The notes under the pieces are model-generated. The model was not told where the DNA came from and ran no database searches. It saw nothing but the letters and a program-made list of their open reading frames with translations. This document shows, one piece after another, positions 26,433 through 36,758 of a DNA stretch of 36,758 nucleotides. Source of the DNA: Saprospiraceae bacterium. Its GTDB lineage: Bacteria; Bacteroidota; Bacteroidia; Chitinophagales; Saprospiraceae. Every line of letters begins with the position of its first letter. Positions within the stretch are counted from its first letter, which is position 1. The stretch covers positions 1-36,758 of the forward strand of contig JASBTH010000411.1 in NCBI GenBank assembly GCA_030148525.1. Direction: 5' to 3'. A program made the position numbers and the translations under genes.

Positions 26433-29400
26433 TCACACTTCCCAAAGCACCTCCCCCAGTCGCTCGATCCCGGCGTCGGTATTAAAGTAGCCGAAGTGAT
26501 CACAGGCAGCCGCATCCACCACCCGGACATTGCCCTCCGGAACAGCCTTCATGCTGGCGACCGAGACGATATCGTCGTTGGCCGCATCAAAGAGCGCGTT
26601 GACCGCTCCGGATTTCAGGCGTTCGACCAGACGGGCGATCAGCTTGCTGCGGGTACCATCGTCGGGAATCAGGCTGGAATCCCCCGGTACGATGATGTAA
26701 GGTATTGGCGCTTTCTTTCCGGACCGGTTCAGGGTTTTGACCACCTCCGAATCGGGACGAAGTTGCTGCTGAGTCACCTCTACCTTGTCCCAGGCTTTAC
26801 TTACGAAAGACAGTAATGAATTGACCACCGAGGGAATGGGCAGAAAATTCAATACGATTCCCATACCGTTCAGAAATACATCGTAGGCCGATGCCCAGGG
26901 GCTTCCTGCATTGGGGCTTCCCACCTCTACAAACGTACTGACCATGGCATCGCCACCCTCTTCTTCCAGTAGCCAGCGACTGATCAGGCCACCCATGGAA
27001 TGGGCAATCAAAATCACCTCCCGCTGTTCGTTCTTGCGGCAACCCACCGCTTCGAGCGCCGCTTTCAGGTCCCGGGCGGTTTGCTCGATGGGGACACTCA
27101 GGCTGTCGTAATCAAAGGTTAGTGTCAGATCAATCTGATCCGACAGGGGACGAAGCTCCCCTTCTACCGGACGCTGAATCCGGCGGGTGATCGCCCGCTT
27201 ATCGCTGGTATCACCGATCAGACCGTGTACGACCACCAGGATCTTTTTGGCGGAAGCCACTGCCTCCGCAATGGCCGGTTCGTCTAAAACATATACCGGA
27301 TCCTGATCCTCCCAGCCGACCATAGCCAGTTTGGGGTAGGGATCCTCCTTTCCCAGCAACTGAGTGTATTTGAGGCGTTGCAGGTAAATCTTCAGGCTCT
27401 TGCCCAACCCGCGTACCGTCGGCTCGTCGGGCGATGGCAGGCTGCGGATGTGCACCATTCCCCGGGCATCCGTATAGCCCAGCGGCAGGTAAGCACCAGC
27501 TTCTTGATCGTAGCCCATGGGCAGCAGGGCTTCGCGGGTACCCGGTTCGAGTTGCAGCACGAGCGGATGCGCTGCATCCACCTTTTCTATTCCTTCCACA
27601 TCGTGCAGTTCCAACACATCCATACAGCCATCAGCTTGTCGGCTGGCCACCAAATTGGCCGGTTCCACACATCCGGAAACGGAAGGGGGTGGTTTGAGGG
27701 CGGTCACCGAGCGACTCACCTCCTGACTACTCGTCAACCGTACCTTTTGGGCCGCGAAACCCTCCGGTGCCGTTAATTGAATGCGATCCATGGCCACCTG
27801 GCCACCGGTGGGCAGTGCTGCACCTTCGGTAGGTCGGCGAATGATGAAGGGTACATCAAAGGTCGCCCAGTCGCGGAGTGGACCGCGTTCCTCTTCCTCT
27901 CCGATTCCCCGCGAAATGCCTTTTGTGCCGCGACGGGCCAATGCCAGATCGGGCAACTCCCATTCCTCCGCCGAGAAGGGGTGCGTAGAAATAACCACCT
28001 TAAACATGTTTTTCACCTCCGTCTCGCCCCATTCCTCGTATAGAATATCCGGGATATACAGCGGGATGTAAAATCGCCTCCGGCCCCCGCTTACGTAAAA
28101 AAGCCGCACGGGCTGGGTATCGTCTTGCTGAAATTCCTGAACCGGAAAATGCGAAACCGTAGCTCCGTATTTTTCATTGTAAAAGAGTACACACGCCCAG
28201 AGGCTCCCCTGGTAAGTGGTCGCGTCCTTCCGTCGCTGCAGAGTGAAAGTGATATAGGGCTTGGTCCACTGGCCATTTCGTTCCTGATAAGACAAAACCG
28301 CCATGTCCTCCTGATAATCCAGTTCCACGGGCTTACCGGGCGCATCATCGTGCTGGTAATCCGGATACGAAAAGAGCTGCACATCGAATTCCTGCAACAC
28401 ATTCAAAGAAGAATCGGGATTACTGCGCTTCCATCCTTCCAACCAGTTGCTGACGTGCTCCAATCGGGCCACGAACAGATCAATGGCCTTGTCGGAGGTA
28501 CGGGGAATCCCTTTAAAAAGTGGGCGCTCGCTGCCCGCCGGACAGATAATCCATTGGCCATCTTCCAGATCAATGCGGTACTCCGATTCCTCCGGGGGGG
28601 ATACATACAGGAGATCCCCGGCCTCTTGTCGGAGCTCGTTCCTCAGCTCCGGCTGCTGCTCCAGCCCCGGCCCCCAACCGACCATCAGCGGGTCGCGCTG
28701 TTTCGGCAGTTCTACGGCATAGACGCTTTGAGGGTCGGCCCAGTCTCCCGGCAATACGCGAGCCTGGCCGGGATCCACCTCCCGGACTACCGCCTGACCG
28801 GTGCTATCATCGGCCAGATGTACCGTCAATTGCTGCCCTTCCTCTATCTGCTGCATGGCTCCCGCATTGAGGAACCAGGCCGCTGCCTTAGGGTCGAAGT
28901 ACAAGAAGTGTTTAAGTACCGTATGCCGGGCCCGGCCGAACAGAATGGGTTCTTTATCCGGCCACTTACCCAATACCTCCCGGATTGGGTGCTGCATATG
29001 CTGGACCTCCGGATGCAGGCGGGCATTGATCAGGGTGACCAGCTGACCGTAGGTCAGGCCCTGCAAGGACTCCTCTCCCAAAGCCTCCAGCAAAGTGGTG
29101 GTGAAGACCCCGCGCGGAATGCCTTTATATCGCTTTTCGTAGGCCAGTTCGTAGGCCCGCGCAGCCGAAAGGGTCACGTGCCGGCCCATGCGCGGGGAAC
29201 GCTCCTGCCCTGCCCCATCGTACTGCGGATGACCGTGCAAGCTATCGAACGCCAGCATACGCATGGAACCAGTCGTCAGGCGGGGCGTCAGGGCCGTATT
29301 GCGCGATACTGAGCCGGAGTGGCAACTATCGAAAACAGCCAGAAAGTGGGTACCCCGGTCTTCTCCCTGTTCGTCGGTAGTGGCTTCCCAGATCAGGTGG

Positions 29401-29777
29401 CTAATCTCTTTATCCGTCAGGTCCTGAGCCGTCGTACGACTATCGTGGCAAACCAGGGTTTGCAGTTTTCCATCGGCCTGCAGGTGTGCCAGTTCGGGGG
29501 GAGCCAATACCTCCGATCCGTGACCGCTGTAATAAAATACACAGAGGTCGTCGGGGCCCGCCTCCCGGAAATGACCAAAGGATTTGATCACCGCTTCCCG
29601 GGTAGCATCCCCATCAAAAAGGGTGTGAGCGTCCAGTTTCAGATCATTGGCAGCGGCGTACTGGCGCAGGAAGCGTCGCATCATCCGGGTATCGTACTCA
29701 CAACCGTGGAGGTTGCGCACATCCCCGTCGTACACGTTGATCCCCACGAGTACAGCGTAGAGTGTTGCTTGGGCCAT
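26433..29777 (-). CDS. Caspase-like protease fused to alpha/beta hydrolase
   Basis: A 1114-aa fusion. Residues 1-285 are a peptidase C14 (caspase/metacaspase-like) domain: YAVLVGINVYDG, CVFYYSGHGSEV with catalytic His86, and LAVFDSCHSGSVS with nucleophile Cys152. Residues 290-840 are mostly beta-rich and unrecognised, with a module at 505-600 (SLWACVLFYNEKYG, IPLYIPDILYEEW, FKVVIST) of a kind I associate with Bacteroidota caspase-family proteins. Residues 844-1114 are a lipase-like alpha/beta hydrolase: ILVVVHGLIGD, VILIAHSMGGLISRW with Ser927, FDAANDDIVS (Asp1068 or 1069) and CDHFGYF (His1094). Both active sites look intact. No signal peptide or T9SS tail, so cytoplasmic. The 328-aa gene ends 3 bp upstream. 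Possible role: stress or defence executioner, unproven. Confidence 0.88.
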   Translation of the reverse strand: MAQATLYAVLVGINVYDGDVRNLHGCEYDTRMMRRFLRQYAAANDLKLDAHTLFDGDATREAVIKSFGHFREAGPDDLCVFYYSGHGSEVLAPPELAHLQADGKLQTLVCHDSRTTAQDLTDKEISHLIWEATTDEQGEDRGTHFLAVFDSCHSGSVSRNTALTPRLTTGSMRMLAFDSLHGHPQYDGAGQERSPRMGRHVTLSAARAYELAYEKRYKGIPRGVFTTTLLEALGEESLQGLTYGQLVTLINARLHPEVQHMQHPIREVLGKWPDKEPILFGRARHTVLKHFLYFDPKAAAWFLNAGAMQQIEEGQQLTVHLADDSTGQAVVREVDPGQARVLPGDWADPQSVYAVELPKQRDPLMVGWGPGLEQQPELRNELRQEAGDLLYVSPPEESEYRIDLEDGQWIICPAGSERPLFKGIPRTSDKAIDLFVARLEHVSNWLEGWKRSNPDSSLNVLQEFDVQLFSYPDYQHDDAPGKPVELDYQEDMAVLSYQERNGQWTKPYITFTLQRRKDATTYQGSLWACVLFYNEKYGATVSHFPVQEFQQDDTQPVRLFYVSGGRRRFYIPLYIPDILYEEWGETEVKNMFKVVISTHPFSAEEWELPDLALARRGTKGISRGIGEEEERGPLRDWATFDVPFIIRRPTEGAALPTGGQVAMDRIQLTAPEGFAAQKVRLTSSQEVSRSVTALKPPPSVSGCVEPANLVASRQADGCMDVLELHDVEGIEKVDAAHPLVLQLEPGTREALLPMGYDQEAGAYLPLGYTDARGMVHIRSLPSPDEPTVRGLGKSLKIYLQRLKYTQLLGKEDPYPKLAMVGWEDQDPVYVLDEPAIAEAVASAKKILVVVHGLIGDTSDKRAITRRIQRPVEGELRPLSDQIDLTLTFDYDSLSVPIEQTARDLKAALEAVGCRKNEQREVILIAHSMGGLISRWLLEEEGGDAMVSTFVEVGSPNAGSPWASAYDVFLNGMGIVLNFLPIPSVVNSLLSFVSKAWDKVEVTQQQLRPDSEVVKTLNRSGKKAPIPYIIVPGDSSLIPDDGTRSKLIARLVERLKSGAVNALFDAANDDIVSVASMKAVPEGNVRVVDAAACDHFGYFNTDAGIERLGEVLWEV

Positions 29778-29780
29778 AAC

Positions 29781-30767
29781 TTAAAATTGCAGGTCTTCGT
29801 AGGCAGGGTTCAGCTTGGTGTCGACCATGGCTACCCGGAAAATGGCGTAGGTGACATTTTTAAACGGATCGATATAGTCCGGATCCAGAATATCCATATC
29901 GTCGGTACCGGCCGGAAATAAGCGTTTGTAGGTATAGTGGTAGAAAGGTGCCTGTTCCTTGATGAGCTTATAATCTTCGCCACGGGCCAGCAGGAATAAG
30001 CCAGGGCGCAGAGCCCCCACTTTATTGTGTTTATTACCATCCAACAGGCGGTCCTTGGCCGATTGCGTCAGGACCAGGGGTAATTCGTTGCTGGCAAAAA
30101 GAGTTTCAGCCTGGTGGTCTACCAAGCGACCTACCAGATCTTCTACTGCTTTAACGGCGTCCAGGGCGATGCCCGGCAGACCCAGTATTTTCACCAATGC
30201 CTGCCCGGCCTGGGAACGCACCCCGGCAAAAAGGTATTCCCACCACTGGGTCTTTGGGTGCTTTTTCACGTCGAACTTAAGCACGGCTGTGCCCTTCGGT
30301 ATCTCGATCGGCCGGCGACCAAAGGCCTCGTGCAGATCGGCTTTACCCTGCTCGTCATCAGAGCCTTTATCCGAGAACATTTTGTAGAGGTCCAGCCCGG
30401 TAGTGGCGATCCAGTACAGGGGCTGCAGGTGATCATCTACCGGATTTTGCTGCCGGATGGTAATATTCATCGTCGCCCGGTCGCCTTCTTTAAGCTTCTT
30501 ATTCTCGGCCAGGTGAAAATCGACCATCTCCACCCGCATCAGCACATCGGGTTTATCATCTTTGCCGGCAAAGGCAGGCTCCATTTCGTGCAGATGCCGC
30601 ACGGCATTCTGATCGCCGGAGCCATCAATTTGAAAAGGAATGAATTGGTTGGCCAGTTTTTCCTGCAGCGCTTTCAGGCTGCCGCCCTTGGCCTCGAGGT
30701 CCATTTGCTCCAATTCTTCCAGCAAATGATCATAGGTAAGCGTTTGTTTAGGGTCGGTTGTTTCCAT
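29781..30767 (-). CDS. Unrecognised 328-aa partner of the caspase fusion
   Basis: I recognise no domain. The protein starts with a short helical, acidic N-terminus (YDHLLEELEQMDLEAKGG). A beta-rich centre follows (VLMRVEMVDFHLAENKKL, ATMNITIRQQN, LYWIATTGLDLYKMF) and then a helical part with a mildly hydrophobic segment near 190-215 (GQALVKILGLPGIALDAVK). The C-terminal third includes RPGLFLLARGEDYKLI and YHYTYKRLFP and ends NPAYEDLQF. No signal peptide or convincing transmembrane helix is seen. Its stop lies 3 bp before the caspase-fusion start, so the two are translationally close and probably form a functional pair: substrate, inhibitor or sensor are all possible. Confidence 0.8.
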   Translation of the reverse strand: METTDPKQTLTYDHLLEELEQMDLEAKGGSLKALQEKLANQFIPFQIDGSGDQNAVRHLHEMEPAFAGKDDKPDVLMRVEMVDFHLAENKKLKEGDRATMNITIRQQNPVDDHLQPLYWIATTGLDLYKMFSDKGSDDEQGKADLHEAFGRRPIEIPKGTAVLKFDVKKHPKTQWWEYLFAGVRSQAGQALVKILGLPGIALDAVKAVEDLVGRLVDHQAETLFASNELPLVLTQSAKDRLLDGNKHNKVGALRPGLFLLARGEDYKLIKEQAPFYHYTYKRLFPAGTDDMDILDPDYIDPFKNVTYAIFRVAMVDTKLNPAYEDLQF

Positions 30768-30922: not shown

Positions 30923-31028
30923 TTAAAACCCATCCCCCTGCCCCTTCCCTTTGATGAAGGGAAGGGGAGCTTAACGAAGTGCCCAGTAAGCCCTCCCTTC
31001 CCAAAGGGAGGGCTTGGGTGGGTTTTAA
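30923..31028. repeat. Cloverleaf-like element at the end of porP
   Basis: An outer stem TTAAAACCCATCC (30923-30935) pairs with GGGTGGGTTTTAA (31016-31028) apart from one G-T and encloses two perfect hairpins: CCCCTTCCCTT/AAGGGAAGGGG (30941-30951 with 30957-30967) and AAGCCCTCCCTT/AAGGGAGGGCTT (30988-30999 with 31004-31015). The porP stop codon (31025-31027) lies inside the outer stem. The layout suggests a mobile miniature element that landed at the gene end, perhaps now serving as its terminator. Confidence 0.75.
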
Positions 31029-32077
31029 AACGACGGACACAACACACACGTCCGTTCTCCCGCCAGGGGTACACTCAGATACAGTTCCAGCCCCCCGAAC
31101 CCGGCCGTTGCCTGTCCCAGACGCGAAAGGGTCGCATCGTAAGTAAACCCAAATTGCCAGCCGTTTTGCGCGAAAGCGGTGGTCATCACCAGAGCATCCA
31201 CCAAGGCGGGTGTACGGGTAGCACTGCCGGCCAGGCGCACCGAAAGGTCTGCACGCACGTAGCGGGTCAGTGGCCCCCGGTCCTTGCCCTGCAGACCGAT
31301 CACCCCGTAGCCGCCCAGCAAACCGTGCCACTGACGAGCATTGAACAAGGTGTAGTTGCGGTACATCCCCTGTAAGCCCACAATCAAGCCCGGTCGCTCG
31401 GTTTGGTTGAGGTAATTCAGGTGCACATTACCGTGCACTACCAGTCCCAACCCCACGGAATAAGCATCGTCCTCCAGAAAAGACATACTTGGCGATAGCA
31501 GATGATCCACACTTGCACCCACCGACCACCGCCCTTCCCGCTGGTAGAGCAACAGCCCCGCTGCAGCATCGAGCCGGGTGCTGCTGAAACGCAGGAATGA
31601 CTCTCCGTTGCTGAGATCAGGGCGGTATTCCGTGCCGTCAAATTGGGCATCGAATCGCAGATCCCGGTTACCCAGTTGGTGCTGGATGATGCCCACTTCC
31701 AAACCGCCTGACAAATACAGGTCGGCCGATAGTTTTTGGTGATAAGACAGACTCGCCTGGGCATTCAACCGCCGGAAGCGGGAGGCCCCGCTTTCTTCCA
31801 TGCTGGCTGAGAGGCTGGCGCCAAAAAAGTCTTCACCCAGGCAGAACGCCTGGGTTTCCAGACCAGCGAATAAGGAGCGGTACGGTTGTCGGCTTACGGT
31901 ATTCCATTGGGTGCGTGCCAGGGCCGTAAAGCGGGCCTGGGTAGCAATACGACCGGTTTCTGCCGGATTTAGCGAAAGCGGCAGGGCCCGGATAGAGGTA
32001 AAATACTCGTCCTGGCCCGCCAGGAACTGAATCCCGACGAATAACATGAGTACCAACAACCAATACCTTCGCCTCAT
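31025..32077 (-). CDS. PorP/SprF family T9SS outer-membrane protein
   Basis: PorP/SprF proteins are outer-membrane barrels that help T9SS deliver and anchor specific type B cargo. The 350 aa begin with a signal peptide (MRRRYWLLVLMLFVGIQFLAG, cleaved before QDE). DEYFTSIRALPLSLNPAETG is the family's start (the usual form is QFMNNPLAINPAYAG, here diverged), followed by RFTALARTQWNTVSRQPYRS, and FDAQFDG and YSVGLGLVVHG as later strands. The gene starts 2 bp after the stop of the giant type B protein, the classic cargo/partner arrangement seen with SprB-SprF. Its stop codon is embedded in the cloverleaf element. Confidence 0.92.
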   Translation of the reverse strand: MRRRYWLLVLMLFVGIQFLAGQDEYFTSIRALPLSLNPAETGRIATQARFTALARTQWNTVSRQPYRSLFAGLETQAFCLGEDFFGASLSASMEESGASRFRRLNAQASLSYHQKLSADLYLSGGLEVGIIQHQLGNRDLRFDAQFDGTEYRPDLSNGESFLRFSSTRLDAAAGLLLYQREGRWSVGASVDHLLSPSMSFLEDDAYSVGLGLVVHGNVHLNYLNQTERPGLIVGLQGMYRNYTLFNARQWHGLLGGYGVIGLQGKDRGPLTRYVRADLSVRLAGSATRTPALVDALVMTTAFAQNGWQFGFTYDATLSRLGQATAGFGGLELYLSVPLAGERTCVLCPSF

Positions 32078-32079
32078 CG

Positions 32080-35000
32080 CTATCGAATTAAGGTTACATC
32101 CCCTTTCTTACGTAAAACTTCTCCGTCGATGTAATGCAGCTCGGCAACGTACACGTATACGCCCGCCTGGACGGGTTGACCCCGGAACCGCCCGTCCCAT
32201 CCGTGGGTCGATTCATTGGGCTTACCATCCTGCCGCTCAAAGACCAGGTCACCACCGGGACCGTAGACCCGCAGGGAGGGTATGCCCACCAGCCCCGGAT
32301 TGGAGGATCGCACCATAAATACATCGTTGGTACCGTCCCCGTTAGGGGTAAAAGCGTTGGGGATAAATACACCCAGATCGCGGTTAACATCGACGGTCAC
32401 CTGGATCGTATCCAGCACGGTGCATCCGCGGTCATCTGTTACCTGCACGATCAGGGCACCGGAACGAAGCGGACGAGCGGTGGTAAGGGCCTGGTCCGGG
32501 TCAACCACAAACCCGGCCGGCGACCATGCAATGGTGGCTTCCGCCAAATTCACATCCACCGCAACGGGAAAGGATTCTCCCAGCTCGATGCGCAGAGAAT
32601 CATCGGAGGTTATCGCGGCCGTTAGTTCGTCCACCGCCGGAATAGTGGTCAATGAATCGGCAAAACAGCCGTTATCGGTCTGAGCAGTCAGGAGGTATTC
32701 GCCGGGTTGTAATCCGGTGTGCAACGTTCCCTCCCGCTCGTAGCCGGGACCGGTGACCATTACGGCGGCAGATGGTTCCACATCGGCCCGCAGCAGGAAT
32801 CCCTGGGCTTGCGTGCAACCTTGTTCCTTATCAATGGTCAGCTCCGGACTACCGAAAGCCGTCCACGACCGGGTTGTCCGGTCAAAACAAATCCCTTCGT
32901 TTCCAGCGCGTAATTCCACCACATATTCGCCGGCCACAGACTGGGTGAAGGTAACGGAGTCGCCATACTGTACGCTGCCGTCAGGCAGCCACCAGGCCAG
33001 TTCGTCGACCGTATCCGACCGGTCCACCAGCCGAATGACCGAGGGCGTACATTCCTCTAGTACATCAATGTCAAAGGCCGCTCTTGGGGTTGGTCGCACA
33101 AAGACCGGAGCGGTGACACTATCCCGGCAACCGATCTCACTGGTTACCAGCAATGACACACTGCCTGCCCCCGATTCGGTGAATGCCTGTTGGATGGTAC
33201 AACCACTGCGCCGGGTGCCGTCGGGTAATCTCCATACACAGGAAGCACCTCCCTGGGATTCACTAACCAGGGCAACTTCCACGCCGGTACAGACCGAATC
33301 AATGGGACCGATGGCCGCCCTCGGGCCACCAACCACCTCAATGGTTTGGCTGCGCATGGTGGTGCATCCGGCTCCACTGGTGGCCATCGCCGCTACGGTG
33401 TAGGTGCCGAGGCTGTCCAAACGAGTCTGCACTTGCGTAGTCTGCAGAAAGCGCTCCTCTCCCACAGAAATAAAGGTCGGCTGTCCATTGGTCTGCATGC
33501 GCAAGGTGATTAGCTCGCCCGGGCAGGTCTGGGCGGGAGCGGTCAGGGTCAGGTTGGGAATGGGCTGCACATCTAGTACCAGGCTTGTAGAATCCTGCCC
33601 GCAACTGAATACCTGTGCTTCGATCCGTTGGGGTCCTACTGAATCAAAAACCACCGGTACGCGCAGACCTTCCCGCCGCGAGCCGTCGGGTAACAGCCAT
33701 TCCACCCGCGCATCCAGCGGGCGCGACAAACTTTCCAGGATGACCGTATCACCCAGGCAGGGTTGATCGTCGGCTACCGTAATGGAAGCCCGGGCGTCGG
33801 TGGGCACAATCACCAACTCCTGAGTAGCCGTATCCTCTCCACACTCGTTGAAGGCCTGCAGGGAGATGTTCACCGTATCGTTCTGCTCGATACCGGTCTG
33901 GTAGCGTTGTGTAGGTGGCTCAAACCCGGAATAGGTGGTTCCGTTACCGAAATCCCACCACAACTGATCGGCCAGCGAACGGTGCCCGAAGGTCACTACC
34001 TCGCCCGAACAGTACTCCGAGCGTATCTCCGAAGCAAAGCGGGCAATGGGCTGAGCCAACACCCGAATAGAATCTACTGCTGCCTCATCACCGCAGCCAT
34101 TTGTTACCGATAAACGCACGGCGTAGGTGGTGTCGCGCATGGCCGGTGGAAAGGAAATAGCAGCAGGGTGGGTCGTAGTCACCGTAGTATCCAACCCAAA
34201 GTCCCACTGAAAAGATAGTCGCTCACCCTCGCTGAGGTTGGTGAAATTCACTTGTAAAGGTCCGCACCCCTCCGTCCTGGACGGATCAAAGGCTACCAGT
34301 GAAGGTGGTTCAAAGATGCGTATCTCTCCGGTCGCAGAGACTGCACACAGATCATCATTAGTCAAGGGGTGAACACTGGCTGCCCGCAGGGTAATGTCAT
34401 AAGTTCCCGGTGACTGGTAGGTATGCGTCGGGCTGGCTCCGGAAGATGAGTTGCCGTCACCGAATGTCCAGGAGTAGCGGTCGGCACCGGTCGTTTGGTT
34501 GTTCATAGCTACTGCTGTACCCACGCAGCCGGTGGAGTCCGGAGTAAAGGCTGCTTCCGGCTCAGCACCAATGGTCAGTTCCAGTTCGTCGGAATTGCAG
34601 GCGGCGGGCAGATCGGGCTTGGTCAGGGTATACCTTTGGATGCCCACATCCAGGGTTGTCAGATCAACCGTACGTCCCGTCAGAGCGGGACCGGTCCAGA
34701 TACCGGTCTGATCGGGCAGGTCCACACTGGTCTGAGTTTCACAAACGAAGATATCATTACCGGCCTGCACCCCGCTGGCATCGATTAGCGTGAGGGTAAA
34801 GTCGTCTTCGCTTTCGCAACTGGTACCCGGGCTAAGCACGTAGGTAAATGTCTGGTCGCCGGTCGGTAAGACGGCCAGATTCAGATTTGGGTTTACGTTC
34901 CGGCCCGATGCATTGCGCCATTCACCTCCCGCCGGGCTGGCCTGGAGGGTAAAGGTTCCCTGATTGGAGCACAGGGTGGTATCAGGTGGCGTTGTGGGTA

Positions 35001-36758
35001 CGGTCAGGGCATCTACCCGCAGAACGGAGGTTGTATTTTGGCTACAGCCCGGATCAATGGTATAGGTAATCTCCACGGGATAGAATCCTTCCCCTCCGGC
35101 GGCCTGGCTATCAAAAGCGTCATCGGTCACTCCGGGTCCCGAAAAGCGCAGATTGCCTCCTTCCGGTGATTGATCAGGGTTTAGCAATGGGGCCAGTTCG
35201 ATGGGATCGTTGTCGTTGCAGACCAAGACGGTATCCGGGGCACTGACGACCGGCAGATCAACCACTTCAATCTCTTTTTGGGCCTGACCCCGGCAACCAT
35301 CCCCATTGCGCTCAAATTGGTACTGTACCGTAAAAGTACCAACACCCGCAGTAAGGGGATCAAAGGTACCGGCAGCAGTGTCCGTAATACCGACACCCGA
35401 CCATACGCCACCCGTTTCGTTGGCGAGCAGTGTCAAAGGGTCACTATCGATACAGACCGCAGCATCGTCCCCAATGTCGATCTGCGGGCCGGTTAATACC
35501 GTAATCACTACCTCGTCACCAGTAGCGCAGTTGCCGCTGCCTACCTGATATTCCAGAAGAAAACTGCCCGGGTTGAAATCAGCGGGATCAAAGGTAGCAC
35601 TGGTTGGAATACCGTCGCGTCGCCAAACGCCACCCGTTTGGGAGGCCCGTAATTCAAAGGAGGCTGCCCCTTCACAAACGGAGGTATCCGAAGCCGGACT
35701 GGTAATCGACACCGGCTCGGGCGTAATCACTCGCACCGTATCCCGGCGCACTTGCTCTCCGCAGGGATTCACCAGGCGGGCTTCAATGGCGTAGGGCGTG
35801 GCCGAAGGCATGAGGGCTACCGGAAAATCTGCAGATGCATAAGCCTGACCGTTAATAGTATACGTAGCCTCTTCCAGTAATGGGTCGGGTGTATACATGA
35901 GTTCATTACAAGCATCGTTCTGGGGACGCAAGGAAAGCGACTGAGCTTCGACCACTTCGAACGTAAAATCAGCCGTACTCGGACTTTCGCAGGCATTATC
36001 CACTTCGAGCGTGACGGTGTACATGCCCGGTCCATTAAAGGTTACGCGGACGGTATCCCCGGAGCGTTCATTATTCTCGAATTGCACCCCGCCATTGTCA
36101 CTCCACTGATACGAAGAGGCGTTGGGGGAACCGGTAGCTACCAGACGCGTGCCCGTAAAACCCTGTCCACAGAGTACGTAATTATCGCCATTACTGCTGG
36201 TGATATTTGAATCGGCCAGGGCCACGGCTGTGGCCGGTTCGATTACGTTGAAGGTCTGTTGAATCGATTGTGAACCGCAGAGGTTAGTGGCCGTCAGGGT
36301 AACCGGCACCTGCCCCGCTTCGGTAAAGGTTATTCCGGGTTCTTCCTCCGTGGAGGTTTGGCTTCCGCCAAAATCCCAGGAGTAGGTCATATCCTCATCG
36401 TTGGAGGGGCAGGTCATATTTTCCACGGCGATGGCGTTACCGATACAGGAGGTGGCTCCGAAGAACATGGGCCTAGGTGGCAACTTAAATGTAACGTCTA
36501 GACTATTGTTCTCGTCACTGCCAGTCTCATAAGAAGCAACTACCCGAATTTCTCTACAAAACCCACTGGGGAAACGGCAATCGTACTCACATTCATCTAA
36601 CAAATCACCAAGATCATACCGATGAGTACGTTCTAATGGGTCGCCTGGACGAATAACGATAGGGTCAGCATCCTCGGACCACAATAAATACATTTCTGTA
36701 AAGGTTCGATTAGGATTTGGTGTAATTGCGACCTCGACTTCGGGATCGGTGATACAAC
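32080..36758 (-). CDS. Giant PKD/Ig-repeat surface protein with T9SS type B domain (5' end missing)
   Basis: The frame is open to the window edge: residues before the first internal Met (36693) read CITDPEVEVAITPNPN, so the true start lies outside. At least 1559 aa are visible. Domains include PKD folds (TYSWDFGGSQ, YSWTFGDGN, FQWDFG, LWWDFGNG), Ig-like repeats with the TGGVW or AGGEW motif (at least three, near the first 600 residues) and further WxLPDG repeats. The C-terminus (GVFIPNAFTPNGDGTNDVF to KKGDVTLIR) is the type B, CHU_C-like sorting domain. It is probably a cell-surface adhesin or gliding protein exported by the T9SS with the PorP/SprF protein encoded next. Confidence 0.93.
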   Translation of the reverse strand, partial: CITDPEVEVAITPNPNRTFTEMYLLWSEDADPIVIRPGDPLERTHRYDLGDLLDECEYDCRFPSGFCREIRVVASYETGSDENNSLDVTFKLPPRPMFFGATSCIGNAIAVENMTCPSNDEDMTYSWDFGGSQTSTEEEPGITFTEAGQVPVTLTATNLCGSQSIQQTFNVIEPATAVALADSNITSSNGDNYVLCGQGFTGTRLVATGSPNASSYQWSDNGGVQFENNERSGDTVRVTFNGPGMYTVTLEVDNACESPSTADFTFEVVEAQSLSLRPQNDACNELMYTPDPLLEEATYTINGQAYASADFPVALMPSATPYAIEARLVNPCGEQVRRDTVRVITPEPVSITSPASDTSVCEGAASFELRASQTGGVWRRDGIPTSATFDPADFNPGSFLLEYQVGSGNCATGDEVVITVLTGPQIDIGDDAAVCIDSDPLTLLANETGGVWSGVGITDTAAGTFDPLTAGVGTFTVQYQFERNGDGCRGQAQKEIEVVDLPVVSAPDTVLVCNDNDPIELAPLLNPDQSPEGGNLRFSGPGVTDDAFDSQAAGGEGFYPVEITYTIDPGCSQNTTSVLRVDALTVPTTPPDTTLCSNQGTFTLQASPAGGEWRNASGRNVNPNLNLAVLPTGDQTFTYVLSPGTSCESEDDFTLTLIDASGVQAGNDIFVCETQTSVDLPDQTGIWTGPALTGRTVDLTTLDVGIQRYTLTKPDLPAACNSDELELTIGAEPEAAFTPDSTGCVGTAVAMNNQTTGADRYSWTFGDGNSSSGASPTHTYQSPGTYDITLRAASVHPLTNDDLCAVSATGEIRIFEPPSLVAFDPSRTEGCGPLQVNFTNLSEGERLSFQWDFGLDTTVTTTHPAAISFPPAMRDTTYAVRLSVTNGCGDEAAVDSIRVLAQPIARFASEIRSEYCSGEVVTFGHRSLADQLWWDFGNGTTYSGFEPPTQRYQTGIEQNDTVNISLQAFNECGEDTATQELVIVPTDARASITVADDQPCLGDTVILESLSRPLDARVEWLLPDGSRREGLRVPVVFDSVGPQRIEAQVFSCGQDSTSLVLDVQPIPNLTLTAPAQTCPGELITLRMQTNGQPTFISVGEERFLQTTQVQTRLDSLGTYTVAAMATSGAGCTTMRSQTIEVVGGPRAAIGPIDSVCTGVEVALVSESQGGASCVWRLPDGTRRSGCTIQQAFTESGAGSVSLLVTSEIGCRDSVTAPVFVRPTPRAAFDIDVLEECTPSVIRLVDRSDTVDELAWWLPDGSVQYGDSVTFTQSVAGEYVVELRAGNEGICFDRTTRSWTAFGSPELTIDKEQGCTQAQGFLLRADVEPSAAVMVTGPGYEREGTLHTGLQPGEYLLTAQTDNGCFADSLTTIPAVDELTAAITSDDSLRIELGESFPVAVDVNLAEATIAWSPAGFVVDPDQALTTARPLRSGALIVQVTDDRGCTVLDTIQVTVDVNRDLGVFIPNAFTPNGDGTNDVFMVRSSNPGLVGIPSLRVYGPGGDLVFERQDGKPNESTHGWDGRFRGQPVQAGVYVYVAELHYIDGEVLRKKGDVTLIR

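What the first reader, a model, noticed from the sequence alone, without database searches (positions are those of the whole stretch)
26433..29777. Caspase-like protease fused to a lipase-type hydrolase
One polypeptide joins an intact His86/Cys152 C14 protease to an intact Ser927/Asp/His1094 alpha/beta hydrolase across about 550 residues of mostly unknown beta-rich sequence. A protease and a lipase on one chain suggest a switch: the caspase part could release or activate the hydrolase, or the linker could sense a signal. Known bacterial caspase-like proteins act in gasdermin and CRISPR-linked (Craspase) cell-death pathways, but no gasdermin, CRISPR or NTPase gene is nearby here. The role is inference; the two active sites are seen.
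Basis: partly seen in the sequence, partly recalled or inferred. Interest (0 to 1): 0.78.

Follow-up and report, generated by a model that had tools for sequence, protein, structure and literature searches.

The report
Caspase–lipase two-enzyme death-effector protein
This bacterium makes one long protein that joins a caspase-type protein-cutting enzyme to a fat-cutting enzyme; the same joined protein is found in four bacterial phyla, often beside immune-type sensor and protease genes, so it is probably a self-destruct effector resembling the caspase-driven cell death of animals.

Summary
Window 26433-29777 (minus strand) encodes an intact 1114-aa caspase (C14) plus alpha/beta-hydrolase fusion with all five catalytic residues. 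It is a real, conserved family: 37 full-length members in the same order (His86, Cys152, Asp1068 and His1094 in 37/37; Ser927 in 36/37) and four more on plasmids of Rhizobium, Deinococcus, Nostoc and Anabaena.

The chain is modular. A caspase plus three-part beta-rich module (residues 1-655) also exists alone, with the caspase dyad kept in 70/70, and carries either the alpha/beta hydrolase or, independently, an unrelated GDSL lipase. In a sister species the syntenic gene stops exactly at this joint.

Relatives lie beside CHAT proteases, EAD11 adaptors, nSTAND1 NTPases or MoxR-vWA genes. This points to the NTP-dependent conflict network of Kaur et al. 2020, who had already noted caspase and alpha/beta-hydrolase pairing.

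At this locus the partner is an operonic, extremely conserved orphan (P0002). In other genomes its homologues sit directly before another caspase-lipase or are fused to a caspase-GDSL-lipase.

Best reading: a cytosolic, protease-gated lipase effector of a suicide/defence system. Function is inferred, not tested. New variant of a known kind.

The parts
26433..29777 (-). P0001, caspase-linker-alpha/beta hydrolase fusion, 1114 aa
28932..29768 (-). Caspase (C14) domain, residues 4-282
   Evidence: Pfam PF00656; family HMM CASP E 5e-81
29520..29522 (-). Catalytic His86
   Evidence: 70/70 in the caspase module family; codon checked
29322..29324 (-). Catalytic Cys152 (DSCHSG)
   Evidence: 70/70; codon checked
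28518..28904 (-). Linker part LA, residues 292-420, probably a small beta barrel (tentative)
   Evidence: Family HMM; AF2 fragment model pLDDT about 80 over 295-410; weak Foldseek
28221..28514 (-). Linker part LB, residues 422-519
   Evidence: Family HMM; no known family
27813..28202 (-). Linker part LC, residues 526-655, beta sandwich (tentative); end of the exchangeable caspase module
   Evidence: Family HMM; syntenic sister protein ends here; weak RhoGDI/DUF4384 fold hits
27909..27911 (-). Arg623 in a length-variable loop: candidate proteolytic site (prediction)
   Evidence: Basic in 36-40 of 41 fusions depending on the alignment, but also in 21/23 hydrolase-less members
27276..27794 (-). 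LD, residues 662-834, region that accompanies the hydrolase
   Evidence: Family HMM; absent from hydrolase-less members
26445..27263 (-). Alpha/beta hydrolase, residues 839-1111
   Evidence: Pfam DUF7379/LCAT/PGAP1; HMM HYD E 8e-84
26997..26999 (-). Catalytic Ser927 (AHSMGG)
   Evidence: 36/37, one Cys
26574..26576 (-). Catalytic Asp1068
   Evidence: 37/37
26496..26498 (-). Catalytic His1094
   Evidence: 37/37
29781..30767 (-). P0002, 328-aa orphan, 3 bp upstream of P0001 (operon); predicted partner
   Evidence: homologues beside or fused to caspase-lipases in two other genera; 91% identical to sister at saturated synonymous sites

Best explanation
P0001 is a cytosolic two-enzyme effector of a regulated cell-death or defence system. 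Its N-terminal caspase (predicted metacaspase-like, cutting after Arg or Lys) is held with a beta-rich module that docks partners. The C-terminal lipase-type hydrolase is the damaging part, probably attacking membrane lipids. In relatives a sensor (STAND NTPase, MoxR-vWA complex, or EAD11/TPR-coupled CHAT protease) activates the caspase, which then frees or licenses the lipase and cuts other proteins. Here the activating partner is probably P0002, encoded in the same operon. Shown: both intact conserved active sites, modular exchange, gene company, operon. Inferred: proteolytic activation, lipid target, cell death.
For: Conserved active sites in both halves. Full fusion in Bacteroidota, Alphaproteobacteria, Deinococcota and Cyanobacteria, four times on plasmids. 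The same caspase module independently carries a non-homologous GDSL lipase, sometimes with an amidase, so a caspase plus lipase combination arose at least twice. Pfam on close neighbours against distant ones: CHAT 14/83 vs at most 1/77, EAD11 9/83 vs at most 1/77 (Fisher p 0.0006 and 0.019). CHAT+MoxR+vWA operons at L057, L060 and L069, and next to GDSL forms L091 and L126; CHAT+nSTAND1 at L046, L059, L062 and L065. Nostoc pNLP1 3057-aa chain: caspase, lipase, caspase, nSTAND1, periplasmic-binding domain. P0002 homologue precedes another caspase-lipase (L208) and is fused to a caspase-GDSL lipase in an operon with CHAT and nSTAND1 (L207). S1-pocket acids D29 and D150 are 70/70, matching basic P1 specificity of metacaspases (own knowledge). 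[quoted passage not shown] it also proposes effector deployment by autoproteolysis for the EACC1 caspases.
Against: No activity data. No STAND, CHAT or EAD gene at this locus. The locus looks like a stable chromosomal place (syntenic T9SS-type genes), not a defence island. The sister species does without the hydrolase. The best candidate cleavage site, R623, is also conserved where no hydrolase follows, so release of the lipase by cutting there is not specifically supported. The full-chain structure model is unusable (pLDDT 41). Substrate of the hydrolase unknown.
Confidence: 0.55

Rival explanations
1. The two enzymes share a chain only to be recruited together. The sensor complex activates both by oligomerisation; the caspase cuts other cell proteins and does not process its own lipase.
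For: The caspase module stands alone in 23 of 70 sampled relatives with a complete dyad, some beside caspase- or CHAT-nSTAND1 proteins. The conserved basic loop does not depend on the hydrolase.
Against: The fused order caspase-linker-lipase is kept over long distances and was built twice with different lipases, which favours an intramolecular relation.
Confidence: 0.25
2. The chain is cut and activated in trans by the neighbouring CHAT protease, in the manner of a Craspase substrate; the C14 domain acts later or on other targets.
For: Stand-alone CHAT genes lie by 21/41 hydrolase-bearing but 3/23 hydrolase-less members (Fisher p 0.003); TPR-CHAT or CHAT directly follows at L033, L066, L067 and Anabaena.
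Against: On phylogenetically independent pairs the trend is not significant (median p 0.25). No CHAT gene at this locus.
Confidence: 0.12
3. A housekeeping or stress enzyme of membrane lipid turnover or developmental lysis, not defence.
For: Stable syntenic locus in two species; P0002 under extreme purifying selection.
Against: Patchy distribution (68/399 genomes including caspase-only matches), fast divergence (55% between sister species), plasmid carriage, partner genes of conflict systems.
Confidence: 0.08

Closest known systems
VMAP / MoxR-vWA ternary conflict systems with caspase and alpha/beta hydrolase pairing (Kaur et al. 2020, PMC7159879)
   Same: Caspase-type VMAPs always have an alpha/beta-hydrolase gene next door; some relatives here lie in CHAT-MoxR-vWA operons
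   Different: Here both enzymes are one chain with its own linker module; the window has no MoxR or vWA gene; homology of the two hydrolases not tested
Amidase-metacaspase-GDSL lipase of Chitinophaga pinensis (Asplund-Samuelsson et al. 2012, PMC3501461)
   Same: Same combination of caspase and lipase activity; homologous caspase and linker in the proteins of this architecture found here
   Different: Lipase is SGNH/GDSL, not alpha/beta hydrolase; N-terminal amidase in some
EACC1-caspase two-gene system (Kaur et al. 2020)
   Same: Upstream gene plus caspase with variable C-terminal effector, proposed deployment by autoproteolysis
   Different: NCBIfam caspase_w_EACC1 scores 33.5 against a cut-off of 140; P0002 shows no clear transmembrane helix
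Bacterial gasdermin-caspase and Craspase (TPR-CHAT) pathways
   Same: Works like: caspase-type protease licensing a membrane-damaging or suicide effector
   Different: Executioner is a lipase on the same chain; no gasdermin or CRISPR found

Membership tests
Peptidase C14 (metacaspase-type) | Profile match above curated cut-off | tested here: met
   PF00656 64.3 bits vs 21.4
Peptidase C14 (metacaspase-type) | His-Cys dyad | tested here: met
   H86, C152; 70/70
Peptidase C14 (metacaspase-type) | Acidic S1 pocket (basic P1) | tested here: met
   D29 and D150 70/70; the correspondence to TbMCA2 pocket residues is from own knowledge
Alpha/beta hydrolase (lipase type) | Ser-Asp-His triad and nucleophile elbow | tested here: met
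   S927/D1068/H1094, AHSMGG
Alpha/beta hydrolase (lipase type) | Lipid or ester substrate | not testable with these tools
   Needs assay
VMAP ternary conflict system | MoxR AAA and vWA genes in one operon | tested here: not met
   Absent at this locus; present at relatives L057, L060, L069, L091, L126
EAD-coupled conflict systems | Effector-associated domain on the chain or neighbour | tested here: not met
   None in P0001 or the neighbours scanned; EAD11 or EAD11-CHAT beside relatives; five EAD11 copies elsewhere in this genome
EACC1-caspase system | caspase_w_EACC1 model and EACC1 transmembrane partner | tested here: not met
   33.5 vs 140 bits; P0002 unmatched
Gasdermin or Craspase system | Gasdermin or CRISPR effector gene nearby | tested here: not met
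   No such hit among the neighbours scanned; the rest of the genome was not searched for them

The most novel reading that the evidence does not exclude
A trans-phylum family of single-chain caspase-lipase executioners, with two unrelated lipase folds recruited to one caspase module: a bacterial counterpart of pyroptosis in which the caspase unleashes its own built-in lipase instead of a separate gasdermin, with P0002 as a previously unknown partner that is its substrate, inhibitor or sensor.
Probability: 0.35. Interest if true: 0.85.

Novelty: new variant of a known kind. Interest (0 to 1): 0.62.

Why it matters
It would give a self-contained caspase-plus-membrane-effector machine in bacteria. 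Members occur on plasmids of culturable Rhizobium, Deinococcus and Anabaena, so whether bacterial caspases trigger death by switching on a membrane-damaging enzyme becomes directly testable. It also turns the predicted caspase and alpha/beta-hydrolase cooperation of Kaur et al. into one defined polypeptide, and identifies an orphan partner family.

Tried and rejected
The linker fragment 286-655 gave pLDDT 64; Foldseek hits (RhoGDI-like sandwich E 0.005, V-ATPase beta barrel, a DUF4384 phage protein) have no E below 0.001 and are only hints. A linker profile against Pfam and PDB gave nothing. Phage records: no match. R623 as a lipase-specific release site was weakened because hydrolase-less members keep it. 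A hydrophobic lid as membrane anchor is only slightly more hydrophobic than the rest of the domain (mean 1.35 vs 1.15), so no claim. CHAT versus STAND partner preference is not significant once phylogeny is considered. EACC1 and gasdermin membership were rejected. No paper naming DUF7379 is held and no paper on this exact alpha/beta-hydrolase fusion turned up in the held library. Other phyla could not be sampled as genomes, only through plasmids.

Full report
Observation. The reported ORF lies on the minus strand (29777 to 26433) and codes 1114 residues without a stop. Pfam finds Peptidase_C14 at 7-264 (E 1.8e-17) and alpha/beta-hydrolase models at about 847-1014, with DUF7379, LCAT and PGAP1 above their cut-offs. 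Both active sites are complete: H86/C152 and S927/D1068/H1094. The protein begins directly with the caspase core, and the relatives show no general signal peptide (by eye), so I take it as cytosolic.

Family. A search of 399 genomes of the order found matches in 68. I fetched 40 loci and aligned 37 full-length fusions: H86, C152, D1068 and H1094 are invariant and S927 is kept in 36. On plasmids, tblastn covers 98-99% of the query in Rhizobium ruizarguesonis pRlX4, Deinococcus aetherius pDAETH-2, Nostoc pNLP1 and Anabaena pANA01, all with complete catalytic sites. They are annotated only as 'caspase family protein'.

Anatomy. HMMs of six segments (CASP, LA, LB, LC, LD, HYD) show that CASP-LA-LB-LC (about 650 aa) also exists alone and that LD accompanies HYD. 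In a tree of 70 caspase modules the hydrolase state changes at least 11 times on supported branches, while the caspase dyad is 70/70. The two halves of full-length members are correlated in divergence (Spearman 0.51; largest of 500 permutations 0.22), as expected if the fusion is old and mostly inherited as a unit. L053 keeps its caspase but has lost the hydrolase serine motif (by eye). Four relatives carry a GDSL lipase in the same position, two of them with an N-terminal amidase (in L091 the match is below the Pfam cut-off), and form one clade; L207 is a fifth, identified through 46% identity to a Pfam-confirmed GDSL domain. A C. pinensis amidase-caspase-GDSL lipase was noted in 2012 (PMC3501461). 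Two unrelated lipase folds on one caspase module argue that the combination matters. The linker itself has no recognised family; a partial AF2 model suggests a small beta barrel followed by a beta sandwich, which is tentative.

Company. Among close neighbours (next gene upstream, next two downstream) CHAT is found in 14/83 and EAD11 in 9/83 proteins, against at most one each of 77 proteins more than 4.5 kb away. Direct annotation shows EAD11-CHAT (L001, L035, L040-L043), TPR-CHAT (L033, L061, Anabaena), CHAT+nSTAND1 (L046, L059, L062, L065), CHAT+MoxR+vWA+caspase (L057, L060, L069), caspase-subtilase (L046, L051, L058) and TIR-caspase-EAD11 (L070). The Nostoc chain joins caspase-linker-lipase to a second caspase, nSTAND1 and a periplasmic-binding domain. 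Hydrolase-less members tend to lie near protease-nSTAND1 proteins (9/23 vs 3/41) and hydrolase-bearing ones near stand-alone CHAT (21/41 vs 3/23), but this is not significant on independent pairs. These are the domains of the NTP-dependent conflict network (PMC7159879, PMC8195603).

This locus. None of those partners is present in the window. The gene is in an apparent operon with P0002 (stop codon, three bases, ATG). In a sister species the syntenic locus has P0002 (91% identical, while four-fold sites agree at only 0.20) and a 651-aa caspase protein ending at the LC/LD joint, 55% identical and without hydrolase remnants. P0002 homologues occur in 9/398 genomes of the family sample. In another genus one lies directly upstream of a caspase-lipase (L208), and in G373 one is fused to the end of a caspase-GDSL lipase followed by CHAT and nSTAND1 (L207). 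P0002 is therefore very probably a functional partner; its role is unknown.

Mechanism. I propose a protease-gated lipase effector. Steps shown: enzymes intact and conserved, modular exchange, company of conflict genes, operon with P0002. Steps inferred: activation by a partner, cutting after basic residues (D29/D150 conserved), release or licensing of the lipase, damage to the cell's own membrane. A conserved basic residue in a 23-51 residue loop (R623) is a candidate cut site, but it also exists without the hydrolase.

Novelty. Caspase and alpha/beta-hydrolase cooperation and a caspase-GDSL fusion had been reported. The single-chain alpha/beta-hydrolase version across four phyla, the shared linker module, and the P0002 family were not found in the papers searched. 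Limits: one genome per species, short contigs, simple ORF calling, no bench data.

Noticed in passing
window 29781-30767 (-); L135 13660-14646 (-): P0002: rare orphan family under extreme purifying selection (91% aa identity at saturated synonymous sites) next to a fast-evolving caspase gene; 36 invariant positions over 10 homologues, six of which show no caspase module in the flanks held.
   Followed up: partly
L128 8087-13165: 1692-aa chain: caspase module, GDSL lipase, MPAB/rubber-oxygenase domain and DUF5995 together.
   Followed up: no
L046 11334-13937; L051 11306-13906; L058 5201-7825: Caspase-subtilase (S8) fusions beside caspase-lipase genes: a second double-enzyme chain.
   Followed up: partly
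L190 3491-12664: 3057-aa Nostoc plasmid protein: caspase-linker-lipase-caspase-nSTAND1-periplasmic-binding domain, near an IS1380 transposase.
   Followed up: partly
L053 7293-10190: Caspase module intact but hydrolase decayed (serine motif lost), beside nSTAND1, CHAT and caspase-subtilase genes.
   Followed up: partly
L193 5403-5723: Short hydrolase-like ORF upstream of a hydrolase-less caspase gene on a Nostoc plasmid: possible remnant.
   Followed up: no
L142-L187 (IMG/VR contigs): Many putative viral contigs encode C14 caspase domains 22-35% identical to this one.
   Followed up: no
window 31025-36693 (-): PorP/SprF gene followed upstream by a 1537-aa PKD protein with a type IX secretion C-terminal domain, just upstream of the P0002 operon; syntenic in the sister species.
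   Followed up: no
G000:C427 1875-5041 (L131): Two further adjacent caspase-like proteins in the same genome; its EAD11 proteins lie on five other contigs.
   Followed up: no
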